Of a stretch of DNA of 64,000 bases, positions 9,901 to 15,900 are shown in pieces. The stretch's first letter is position 1. Each line of letters begins with the position of its first letter. This DNA comes from Oryzias latipes (lineage: Eukaryota; Chordata; Actinopteri; Beloniformes; Adrianichthyidae), in assembly GCF_002234675.1 (NCBI RefSeq), contig NC_019872.2:13017950-13081949 (forward strand), in the 5' to 3' direction. Under the pieces are notes generated by a model. That model made no database searches and had not been told where the DNA came from. It was given only the letters and a program-made list of their open reading frames with translations. Both the position numbers and the translations under genes were made by a program.

Positions 9901-12900
9901 TTCCACACATAGGACTGTAATGATGGTTGAACATTTTTTTCTGTCATCCCTTTATTTAAATTTGAAATAATTTTTTAATGGCATAGGTCGATTCAATTCG
10001 ATTCTGCTTCAGACAGATCAATCTGGTTGGATCATAGGAATAGAAATCTATTTATCAATTCGTCGTTACAGCCCTAGTTTCAGCCTGGTTCTTTAAACAA
10101 CAGAACTCTTTGTGTTCTTCAAAACTGTTTCGGATTCATATGCTTTGTAAATAACAAAACTTCATGATTACCTCCCATACAGGTTTTCACATGACGTGAC
10201 TCCGGTAATCCTTGCAGCGCACTGCCAAGAATACGAGATCGTTCACACCCTTCTGAGCAAAGGGGCCCGCATCGATCCTCCTCATGACTACTTCTGCAGC
10301 TGCAACTCCTGCAACTATCAGCAGCAGTATGACTCCTTCAGCCACTCGCGCTCAAGGATCAACGCCTACAGAGGACTTGCTAGTCCTGCATACCTTTCCC
10401 TGTCCAACGAGGACCCAGTGCTGGCAGCTCTGGAGCTCAGCAATGAGCTGGCCATGCTCGCGGACATCGAGAAAGAGTTTAAGGTCAATAACAAAATGAT
10501 CACCAATATTTACCATTCAACTGCAGCCTGGAGGCAGATGAACTAATCACACAGTTACCAACATTGCTGCTCTCATAGTGGGACTTTCTGTATAAGGGCA
10601 TTTAAATGTAGACTTTTTGGGGTCACAGACACATTAATACCCCAATCTTTTAGATTAGTCATGCCGGTTTCCTCTTAGTTTAGAGGCAATTTCACATCCC
10701 AAAAAACAGATTTCGTTTGTGTGTAGTCACTGTCACTTCTTTTAAAACCGATTGGACCAAATCAAGTTTTCTTTAACACGTCTCTGCTGTGTATTTCTTT
10801 TTGTCCAGAATGACTACAGTCAGCTGTCCAGCCAGTGTAAGGACTACGTGGTGGGCCTTCTGGATCTGTGTCGCAGCACAGAGGAGGTGGAGGCCATTCT
10901 GAACGGAGAAACATCCTCTGAGCACAGCTACGACGACGTAGGCCGGCCCCCCCTCACCAGGCTGAAATTAGCCATTAAATATGAGCTCAAGAAGGTCAGT
11001 GCACTCTCAAACAGGCAGTTAGAGGCAAAAAGAGCCACAGAGTATGTCAGTATCAAACAGCCTTTGCGAATCCTCCTTTTTTCTTTCACAGCTCTATTCC
11101 GATATATAAAAGGCTTGTCATGTAATTCAGGCCTGGCACAAAACACAATCATTATTTTCCTCTTCATGATCAATTTTCAAGCAGTTGGGACGCACGTGAA
11201 TTGAAAGAGATGCCATCCACACGCCACTACCAAATCCAAGCCCCTGATTGTTCAAAGTTCAACCTGGTTAAACTGTCAATACACGTTCAATGGCTGTGCG
11301 TTTTGTACATAGAGCCTCTTAAAAATGTACTGTACCTTTGAGTTTTGAATGCAGAAGCCCGAAACGCGCATGTAGACCTTTCATTGGAAGTGGCTACTTG
11401 AGCGCGCATCTCCGTAGGCAGTGTGAATGTAGCTAAAGATATTTTCACGCCTCCGAGATCAATCAAGTCCACACCTTTTCCGCCAACATTCACTACAGAC
11501 CAGTCTAAGAATGTGATGCTAGTGTTTTTGGTGGCCTCTCACATTGCCTGTCTTTAAATCTTGCCTTTTAACTCCAAACATGAGTCTTTCTTTTTCTGCT
11601 TTTTGTGTTGTAAAGCTTTTTTAAGCCCTCTAATTTAAACTTACATTATCTCACTAGGCCTCTCTAAGTTTTTGATCAATACAAGTCAGTTTAATCTAAC
11701 TTAATGGTGGGTTTAACTAATGTTCTTGCAAAGAAATGGGATCAAATTACAAAACACAGATATGAAAGTGATGAATATTACTCATGTTTATCAACCATTC
11801 AAGAGTCAGTAGGCAAAACAGGGAGAATGGATTCATTCTTCCATCAGTTCAGTTCAGGAGTTCTACGACGGAGTTTTAGGGCCACGGTGAGGAAAAAAAA
11901 TTCTGGCCAACGTGACGAGATTAAAGTCGTCATGTCGACTTTAATCTCGTCATGACGAGAAAAAACTCGACACAAAGTTTCGAGAAAAAACTCGTCGTGT
12001 CGAGATAAAAGTCGAAATAAAGTTTCGAGATTAAAGTCGCAATGTTGCGCGAGAGCAGTGAAGCTGAGTCTTTCAGGAATATTCAGTGTTATGGCTATTG
12101 TTAGAGAGCTAGTGGCTTTGTACTTCAGAGTTTACGACAGAGTTTAATGGCCACCAAAAAAAAGTAATTTTATTAGGAGATAAAAACTCGTAAATTTACG
12201 GGAAAAAGTTCATTGATTAACAAGGAGAAAACACCGAAGTTGTCTGTTTATCGGAGCCTAGCTTGAAGATGAAATATGTGGAGCCTTTTGTGAAGCTTTA
12301 TTTCAGGATTATAGGTTTAAAACAAAGAGATTTTGAGCCTTTTGGCGACTCAAAATGAAATTATTTTCCCTGTAGCCGTCTTTCCGGGGTTCGGTGTCAG
12401 TAAAGCGGAGTTTCATCTGTAAAATAAGGAGCTCAGAGACACGATTGGGTGTAGAGGATCGCTGCAGCCTTTATTCTCCTTTTCATTCACATAACCTGAA
12501 GTTCATCTGTCACATTACGTCATGAACCTGTCATCCGATCACCCATGCGGAAGTAAACAGTGTCACATACGCCCCCTCCTGCAGATGAAGCGACCCGTTT
12601 GATCATTAAAAAACAAAGATGAATGAAAATAGTCTGTTATATTAGCATTACAACGTTGATAAAGGCAAAAAGTGCTTCTCCTCCTCAGACAGAAGCATCA
12701 CACAAACATAGAGATCTGGTCTCTGGTGGAGGAAGAAAGGATTCAAGCAAACAGCTGCAGGGACACCCGATCATGGCTTCATCGGGCTGCAGTGATCCTG
12801 CAAACCAACCATCAATAAATAAAACTTTAATAACTTGTGAATCAATCAAATGAGCCTCCAGACATTTGGAACGTTATCAATTAACATTCAGCTCACCTGT

Positions 12901-15900
12901 TCAACAAAGTTTAGTCGGTCTGCTCTGCTGCTGCACGGCGATCACCTGCTGCTCTGCGTGCTGCTCACTTCCACAATAATCTCGTAAATTTACGAGTTTT
13001 TTTCTCTCGCGCGCAACATTGCGACTTTAATCTCGAAACTTTATTTCGACTTTTATCTCGACAGGACGAGTTTTTTCTCGAAACTTTGTGTCGAGTTTTT
13101 TCTCGTCATGACGAGATTAAAGTCGACATGACGACTTTAATCTCGTCATGTTGGGCAGAATTTTTTTTCCTCACCGTGGCCCTAAAACTCCGTCGTAGGA
13201 GTTCAGTTGTGTTAGCTCCAGTCTATTTAGGTCAACTCTTCATATTTGTCACAGTTTGGAAGCAGACTATTTACTGAAAGGCTCCCCCCCCCCCCCCCCC
13301 CCCCACTGTGTGTATTTTCCAGTTTGTGGCTCATCCTAACTGCCAGCAGCAGCTGCTGAGCATCTGGTATGAGAACATACCTGGTCTGAGACAACAAACC
13401 ACAGGTGTAAAACTGCTGGTTGTGTTGGCGGTGGCTATTGGACTGCCGGTTCTGGCTGTAGCTTACTGGATCACTCCAAGCAGCAGAGTATGTCAAACTT
13501 TTCATTCATGGTAACTCTTTACTCTTGAATCTATAGAGGGATAATTTTTCTCACATTATTTCCATAGGTTGGTAAAGTGATGCGCAGCCCCTTCATGAAG
13601 TTTGTGGCCCATGCATCCTCTTTCACAATTTTTCTGGGACTTCTCATTCTGAATGCTGCAGACCGTTTTGCAGGAACCACCTTGCTGCCCAACATGACTC
13701 ACCATCAACAACCCGGGGCTTCACAAATGAAGTTGGACCCACAGCTTCTCCACCGCACCATCACTACACCTTTCACCTGGATGGAAATCCTCATCATCTC
13801 ATGGGTCACAGGCAGGATAATCAGAAAGAAAACAAACAAAAATCACAAAAACTCCAAAAAAAAGGTATTTTTATCCTTCTGTAGGCATGATCTGGGCTGA
13901 AGTGAAAGAGATCTGGAGCCAGGGACCAGGGGAGTACCTGGTTGAACCATGGAACTTTCTGGACTTTGGGATGTTGGCGATTTTTCTTGCGTCCTTCAGC
14001 TGTCGGTTCTCTGCCATGAAACACGCTGACATGGCCCAGACCTATGTGTACAAACACAACAAAACTCTGCTCCAACTGCCCCCAGAAATCCATTACTTCA
14101 CTCAGGGTGAGTAAATTCCCACCTGCCAAAACTTACAGCATTCTCCATTCTTCATATACTGCAATGCAAAGCTTCAGAAAGTCTCGCAAAAGAGATTCTA
14201 ATTATAAGAAACCTGAATAAACACATGGTTCATATATTTTTAGACATAAAGAACATAAAGATTTTATGTTGGAAGTTCAGAAATAACCTGGCAAAGGACT
14301 TAATCAGCGCACAAGTGCTTGCTTTTGGTGTTTTATTTTGATTTCACTTTAACCTTTGTGCCATCTTAGATGACCCCACCCTTACATTGATGTGTTATTC
14401 CTACCACGACAAAGGTGGATAAAGGTGGAAAGATTTCATGTAATCCATGGACAGTAGTGAGGTTCACAAATCATTGAAGAAAAAGTCTGTGGGTCTAGAT
14501 GACCCAACTCCCAATGGTAAAGTGCCTAGGAAAGCACAAGGGTTACACTTTGATAGATGAAAAAACAAAACATGAATGCACTTGAACTTTTAACATTCAG
14601 CCTATTTCAAGCAAGGGTTAGTTTCTCCTGCTGTGCCTCAAAAAGCAACTTTAGGTTAGTGCAACACTGTAAATTTGACTGTGAAAATTCAAATTTCTGA
14701 CATGCAGTCATTGATTTTGACAGAACTGAATCATATCTTCAAAGGGTGGATCAAACCAGGTTAAAGGAAAATGGTCAAATTTTACTCATATTAAGAGCAA
14801 AAACAAATTTAATAAAGAGAGCGTGTTGTAATTTGCAAAGAGGTGCAATTCACGGTGAAATAGCAAACTGCATCAATAAATAGCGTCTAAATGAATTTAC
14901 CAATGTTTTCTGTTTTGCAGCAAGAATTTACTGGCTGCCGTCTGATCCTCAGCTCGTTTCAGAGGGCCTTTACGCAGTGGCCGTGGTGCTGAGCTTCTCT
15001 CGGATCGCTTACATCCTCCCTGCCAATGAAAGCTTTGGTCCACTCCAGATTTCTTTGGGGAGAACGGTGAAAGACATCTTCAAGTTTATGGTCATCTTTC
15101 TACTGGTCTTCTTAGCCTTCATGATCGGCATGTTCAACCTGTACTCATATTACCTTGGAGCCAAACAGAACGACGCTTTCACCACGTAAGTTAACAATGG
15201 TGACAACTAATCTCTTCACACATTAGCGTTTTCTGCACAGATTTTATAGGGTTCACTCACACCAGTGGTGTTTAGTTCAGACTAAAGCTCTTTCCTTTCA
15301 ACTTGGATGCACATTTTTGCATGGATTAAAGGTCATTTGAACTCTGGTGAGGAGCAAACAAGCAAATCCTGATCTATAAGGAAGACGATTCACTTGCAAG
15401 TGAACTCTGGAGAGGTTCACTACAGTGTAAGTACAAATAGGCTAAACAACACATAAAGCAGTGGTAATAAACCAAAATAAAAGACATAAAGAGAAAAAGC
15501 TCAAGAAGTGCCATTAAAAAAAAAAGTTGCAAAATGTCCAGTGGGAAGATATAGTTAACCCTCTAGCTTTAGCTAAAGCTCCGGCGTTATCTTTCTTTCA
15601 ATTACTGTTAGTCTTCAACCATGTATGCAATTAACGTAATTCCAGCGGATTCTGGAGTAGAGAAAAGAAGTCTTGCACTGATATGAAATACTGCACAGTA
15701 GTGAAGTGTTTAAACAATCAAAGTAAATCAGCTGATTTTGTCATTGAGAAAAGCAGGTTAGCAACACTTAAGGCTAGTAATGTGTTGTGTATCGGTGCTA
15801 AGCTGATAAGAAAATCAGCTTTTCTACATGTCAGAATCAGCTGATTCAGACTGATCACGAAAAAGGCCGAAGCGTTATGGTATATCGAAGAGTGTGTGTT

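What the first reader, a model, noticed from the sequence alone, without database searches (positions are those of the whole stretch)
11864..13197. Foldback element with nested palindromic arms and a perfect 8 bp target duplication in trpc6 intron 5
Seen: two arms of about 190 bp in inverted orientation, nearly identical, each containing a 16 bp-stem hairpin and a perfect 16 bp palindrome built from CGAGATTAAAGTCG-like motifs. AGGAGTTC flanks both sides. The interior has no transposase. Known: long near-identical arms with 8-9 bp duplications fit Mutator-like or foldback DNA elements. Inferred: the near-identity means recent insertion or arm-to-arm gene conversion. The dense hairpins could affect transcription or splicing, since the element ends about 125 bp from exon 6.
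Basis: partly seen in the sequence, partly recalled or inferred. Interest (0 to 1): 0.75.

Follow-up and report, generated by a model that had tools for sequence, protein, structure and literature searches.

The report
Non-autonomous fish transposon with foldback-like arms
A 1,334-base piece of mobile DNA that encodes no transposase of its own sits in an intron of a fish cation-channel gene; it belongs to a large family that moved recently, and its ends look like those of the IS3EU group of transposons rather than of Mutator.

Summary
In detail: an element at 11864-13197 with 192-bp inverted arms (188 of 192 identical), palindromes and a target duplication, 125 bp before a TRPC6/3-type exon. 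The family is large: 856 exact 21-bp ends in the genome, control 0. Three other copies are 100% identical over 1,334 bp with unrelated flanks, so movement was recent. In 27 of 35 copies examined the duplication is 6 bp; a sister copy has a related empty site. Termini TACGACGG..CCGTCGTA and 6-bp duplications match published IS3EU hallmarks (TA..TA, usually 6 bp), not Mutator. No transposase was found inside. IS3EU-like (rva_4) genes are abundant, but none of 150 matches lies within 21 kb of the 162 ends (of 856) that I could place, so the partner is unidentified. The core looks like an older ~1-kb sibling capped by new arms; each arm holds six 14-bp dyad units, plausibly transposase sites. Verdict: a real, recently active non-autonomous DNA transposon, IS3EU-like by its ends; membership likely, not proven.

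The parts
11857..11863 (+). left copy of the 7-bp target duplication GGAGTTC
11864..11884 (+). left terminus TACGACGGAGTTTTAGGGCCA
   Evidence: 856 exact matches of TACGACGGAGTNTTAGGGCCA in the genome, control 0
11864..12055 (+). left arm, 192 bp, with six 14-bp dyad units of the kind CGAGATTAAAGTCG at arm positions 53, 73, 93, 118, 138, 163
11913..11952 (.). hairpin-forming inverted repeat, 20 bp per side, 95%
   Evidence: I7
11945..11960 (.). perfect 16-bp palindrome TCTCGTCATGACGAGA
12056..12132 (+). linker of 77 bp between the arm and the buried older terminus
   Evidence: inferred from the alignments
12133..12153 (+). buried, degenerate terminus of an older element (3 mismatches to the live terminus); position 270 of the element aligns to base 1 of the sibling elements in L035 and L039
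12133..13005 (+). core shared with ~1-kb sibling elements; no transposase recognised
   Evidence: the frames 12915-13274 and 12623-12850 match no Pfam family at E 1 or better
12981..12996 (.). perfect palindrome CTCGTAAATTTACGAG
13006..13197 (-). right arm, 192 bp, 97.9% identical to the left arm in inverted orientation
13101..13116 (.). perfect 16-bp palindrome in the right arm
13177..13197 (-). right terminus
13198..13204 (+). right copy of the target duplication GGAGTTC

Best explanation
The element is a non-autonomous cut-and-paste DNA transposon. A transposase made elsewhere recognises the termini TACGACGG..CCGTCGTA and probably the repeated dyad units in the arms, pairs the two arms, excises the element and inserts it at a 6-bp (here 7-bp) staggered target of the form S-WWWW-S. 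By termini and duplication length it is most likely mobilised by an IS3EU-type (integrase-fold) transposase. This form arose from an older ~1-kb sibling that acquired new 192-bp arms outside its own ends, and a master copy then amplified. Shown: copies, ends, duplications, a related empty site for a sister copy, recent identical copies, homology of the core to siblings. Inferred: transposase type, arm function, order of the capping event.
For: 856 exact ends genome-wide, control 0. Of 385 first-look candidates for the arm, 40 places were scored and the 40 best rows cover 195-197 of 197 bases at 98-100%. All 20 copies fetched besides the window carry a second inverted arm, though in L026 without its terminus. 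L009, L010 and L011 are 100% identical to the window element over 1,334 bp; the four sites share no similarity in 2 kb of flank a side. Duplication 6 bp in 27 of 35 copies (26, plus L020 once its doubled right end is allowed for); 7 bp in the window, 5 in L017, 4 in L016, none in five. Related empty site: the flanks of L013 joined across one CATAAA match L029:871-984 at 112/114. Targets: W 85-88% at positions 2-5 and 33% at 1 and 6, background 62%, 26 sites counted on both strands. Published IS3EU: complete families always TA..TA, duplications usually 6 bp; fungal IS3EU TAYGG..CCRTA. rva_4 genes: 150 scored of 858 candidates, those 150 over the curated cut-off. One multicopy rva_4 element (L047) reads TATGGGGCGCC at its repeat boundary. 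Core alignment to L035 and L039 from their base 1.
Against: No transposase partner was found: between 150 rva_4 matches and 162 placed ends (of 856) the nearest distance is 21.7 kb; the list of ends is complete only for contigs 1, 2 and the first 15.4 Mb of 3, which hold 27 of the 150 matches, none nearer than 45 kb. The window's own duplication is 7 bp, not 6; five of 35 copies show none. Beyond TA the terminal sequence differs from that of the L047 element, of which only one end was read and no duplication checked. That PF24764 marks IS3EU is my guess from recall, not from a paper. Other superfamilies' transposases were not searched for in this genome.
Confidence: 0.72

Rival explanations
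1. Mutator-like (MULE) foldback element.
For: Long composite inverted arms occur in Mutator/foldback elements such as Tm1 (abstract).
Against: Tm1 has 9-bp duplications; here 6 bp in 27 of 35 copies; termini TA..TA. MULE transposases were not searched for.
Confidence: 0.06
2. A member of another superfamily with 6-7 bp duplications (Dada, hAT6/hAT7, P/Galileo) whose ends happen to be TA..TA.
For: hAT families with 5, 6 and 7-bp duplications exist; Galileo of the P superfamily has foldback-like arms.
Against: Dada targets small-RNA genes (recalled), but Rfam found no such gene in 14 copies' surroundings, only three histone stem-loops in L021, away from the element. hAT and P transposases were not searched for, so against these the argument rests on termini alone.
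Confidence: 0.17
3. Not a transposon insertion: an ancestral hairpin in the intron, or a segmental duplication.
For: None found.
Against: Identical copies with unrelated flanks and own duplications at L010 and L011 (L009 has none), and a related empty site for a sister copy.
Confidence: 0.01

Closest known systems
IS3EU superfamily of eukaryotic DNA transposons (PMC10045372 and PMC12730594, passages seen)
   Same: TA..TA termini beginning TAC (fungal ones TAYGG), 6-bp duplications, inverted ends longer than 30 bp as in the fungal families
   Different: no transposase found; arms of 192 bp with repeated dyad units; partner not found; not compared with Repbase sequences
Galileo (P superfamily), foldback-like (PMC3688188, abstract and section list seen)
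   Same: long internally repetitive arms; Galileo's repeats were shown to be multiple transposase-domain sites, which is what I propose here
   Different: superfamily; sequences not compared
Tm1 Mutator/foldback family (PMC3169594, abstract and section list seen)
   Same: composite inverted arms, members without transposase
   Different: 9-bp duplications, Mutator-type transposase

Membership tests
IS3EU | TA..TA termini | tested here: met
   TACGACGG..CCGTCGTA
IS3EU | usually 6-bp target duplication | tested here: met
   27 of 35 copies; the window copy itself 7 bp
IS3EU | IS3EU transposase encoded by the element or by a partner with the same ends | tested here: inconclusive
   none recognised in the element; 150 rva_4 matches in the genome, nearest to a placed end 21.7 kb, with 162 of 856 ends placed
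Mutator/MULE | 8-10 bp target duplication (9 bp in Tm1; general range recalled) | tested here: not met
Foldback-type architecture | long inverted arms built of short repeats | tested here: met
   six 14-bp units per arm
hAT (typical) | 8-bp target duplication | tested here: not met
   but hAT5, hAT6 and hAT7 exist
Dada | insertion into multicopy small-RNA genes (recalled) | tested here: not met
   no small-RNA gene of Rfam in the surroundings of 14 copies; varied targets

The most novel reading that the evidence does not exclude
An IS3EU lineage has evolved foldback-type arms, as Galileo did in the P superfamily: arrays of dyad transposase sites that also act as exchangeable 'caps', added outside an older element's ends and so making a new, active family out of a decaying one.
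Probability: 0.3. Interest if true: 0.45.

Novelty: new member of a known kind. Interest (0 to 1): 0.3.

Why it matters
It gives a recently active, high-copy vertebrate family with IS3EU-type ends (Repbase held 45 IS3EU families, 17 autonomous, in 2022), and a case in which an old element seems to have been re-armed with new ends. For the host gene it is an intronic insertion with long inverted arms near a splice site, testable in strains. Whether the family already has a Repbase or Dfam name could not be checked. It is otherwise an ordinary transposon insertion.

Tried and rejected
Partner search. Four pairs of ends 2.2-3.0 kb apart (L029-L032) and the 2.2-kb copy L015 were read for frames: the longest is 147 aa in L029. 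Two L029 frames and eight frames of L030-L032 went to Pfam at E up to 1: only one weak match, 0.21, under its cut-off. Other frames of these loci were not scanned. The extra DNA in L029 and L015 has inverted ends of its own and I read it as nested Harbinger-like and hAT-like inserts by recall of such ends. Ends followed by a base other than C (38 + 34) were tried as possible partners; of the two fetched, L050 is a ~230-bp palindromic element without a duplication and L051 matches its left part at 75%; no frame over 115 aa. The boundary of the group-B rva_4 elements was traced: TATGGGGCG, not our end. Boundaries of L048 and L044 did not complete, nor was a further end pattern nor the search with the element's interior alone.

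Literature. Six motif strings of arms and ends: 0 papers. IS3EU: 35 papers, 30 listed, listing only except the three opened; IS3EU with medaka: 3, with zebrafish: 6; the one IS3EU mention in PMC4746887 was not among the passages shown. Foldback with medaka: 4, none on such an element by title. Medaka with miniature inverted-repeat and target site duplication: 10 papers, 9 listed, none opened. GingerRoot: 4, listing. None of this shows absence from Repbase or Dfam. Other teleosts could not be tested: no other fish genome is held.

Full report
What is there. The window is G000:C14:13017950-13081949 of a 734-Mb genome in 25 contigs; size and contig number suggest medaka (inference). At 11864-13197 lies a 1,334-bp element with 192-bp inverted arms, 188/192 identical. 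Its termini are TACGACGGAG..CTCCGTCGTA. Each arm holds six 14-bp units (CGAGATTAAAGTCG and variants) at positions 53, 73, 93, 118, 138 and 163, spacing 20-25 bp, and a perfect 16-bp palindrome (units listed there for the left arm). The arm folds far better than its shuffles (z -6.1).

The duplication. In register it is 7 bp, GGAGTTC. In 35 copies examined (the window, 20 with arms, 14 picked by their ends) 26 have exactly 6 bp; L020 makes 27 because its right end is doubled by 46 bp and GAAGAG follows the outer one. One has 7 (window), one 5 (L017), one 4 (L016). Five have none: L009, L026 (right end lost), L031, L032, and L035 (5 of 6 bases match). The L013 copy sits in a Harbinger-like repeat (recalled label) whose uninterrupted copy in L029 has CATAAA once (112/114): a related empty site. 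L024 sits inside another copy of its own family (93%). Targets prefer S-WWWW-S (26 sites with exact 6-bp duplications; the window and L020 are not among them).

Copy number and age. TACGACGGAGTNTTAGGGCCA occurs 442 + 414 times, backward control 0. The arm query gave 385 candidates, of which 40 were scored, a selection of the best, at 98-100%. Three other copies are 100% identical over the whole 1,334 bp, with no flank similarity: separate insertions from a very recent source. L010 and L011 have their own 6-bp duplications, L009 has none and is abutted by an older right end of the family. The other 16 copies aligned (L015 left out) are 94.7-98.9% identical to the window, gaps ignored. Per 100 bp, the left 200 bp are at 99.1-99.4%, the inside at 90.5-97.1%, and 1101-1300 at 98.7 and 95.7%; the left-arm figure is inflated because the copies were chosen by that arm.

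How it was built. Ten further elements were fetched by their ends. In two, L035 and L039, the alignment starts at their base 1 and at window-element position 270 (12133), where the window has a degenerate terminus (TACGACAGAGTTTAATGGCCA). Six others align from 293-310 to 1135-1143; L041 over 789-1143 only; L038 is a deleted copy with arms. So the core looks like an older ~1-kb sibling, with a new arm and a 77-bp linker outside its left end and a new arm in place of its right ~135 bp (L039). The direction (capping rather than loss of arms) is inferred from the degenerate buried terminus.

Which superfamily. The IS481EU paper states that complete IS3EU families always have TA..TA termini and that duplications are usually 6 bp (passages); fungal IS3EU end TAYGG..CCRTA (passages). 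This fits. Mutator (9 bp in Tm1, abstract) does not. PF24764 (rva_4), chosen by me from recall as the likely IS3EU integrase domain, has 858 candidates and 150 scored matches in this genome and rings in 0 of 14 control genomes. One, in L047, has a 317-aa frame with rva_4 at E 6.5e-70 and rve at 7.3e-10; its copies share a boundary at L047:7056-7060, where the sequence reads TATGGGGCGCC, a TA terminus; the other end was not read. But none of the 150 matches lies within 21 kb of the 162 ends I could place, of 856. The partner is unknown; hence 'IS3EU-like by its ends'. Small-RNA genes, Dada's targets (recalled), were not found around 14 copies.

Mechanism. Inferred: a transposase in trans binds terminus and arm units; Galileo's THAP domain binds many sites in its long arms (abstract), the closest tested parallel. 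The same units explain the hairpins without any RNA role. An effect on splicing of the exon 125 bp downstream is possible and untested.

Noticed in passing
L047:1-7058 (C1:34225826-34237557): An rva_4 (IS3EU-like) transposon that seems ~11.7 kb long with ~1.93-kb inverted ends (span inferred from match positions), further copies at 93-99%, one terminus TATGGGGCGCC, with a frame inside that looks Tc1-like by eye.
   Followed up: partly
L048:5460-7925: A 2.5-kb element with TATGGAGAG termini and a 6-bp duplication CACCTC, with a frame resembling a THAP domain by eye, beside an rva_4 frame.
   Followed up: no
L009:4724-6353: The identical young copy is abutted by a second, older right end of the same family; no duplication.
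   Followed up: partly
L020:6150-6240: Right terminus doubled in tandem at 46 bp, with the 6-bp duplication after the outer copy.
   Followed up: yes
L050, L051: Short old relatives (~230 bp and palindromic in L050) ending TACGACGGAGTTTTAGGGCCAG; 72 ends genome-wide are followed by a base other than C, most of them G.
   Followed up: partly
window 13284-13304: Run of 21 C between the element and the exon, where the polypyrimidine tract would lie.
   Followed up: no
G000:C19:7124825-7289044 and G000:C3:4884597-4911482: Six ends in one orientation over 164 kb, and three equally long pairs of ends ~12.8 kb apart: probable local duplications carrying the element.
   Followed up: no
L021:907-952, 2085-2130, 8209-8255: Three histone 3' stem-loops near one family copy: it lies in or beside a histone gene cluster.
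   Followed up: no
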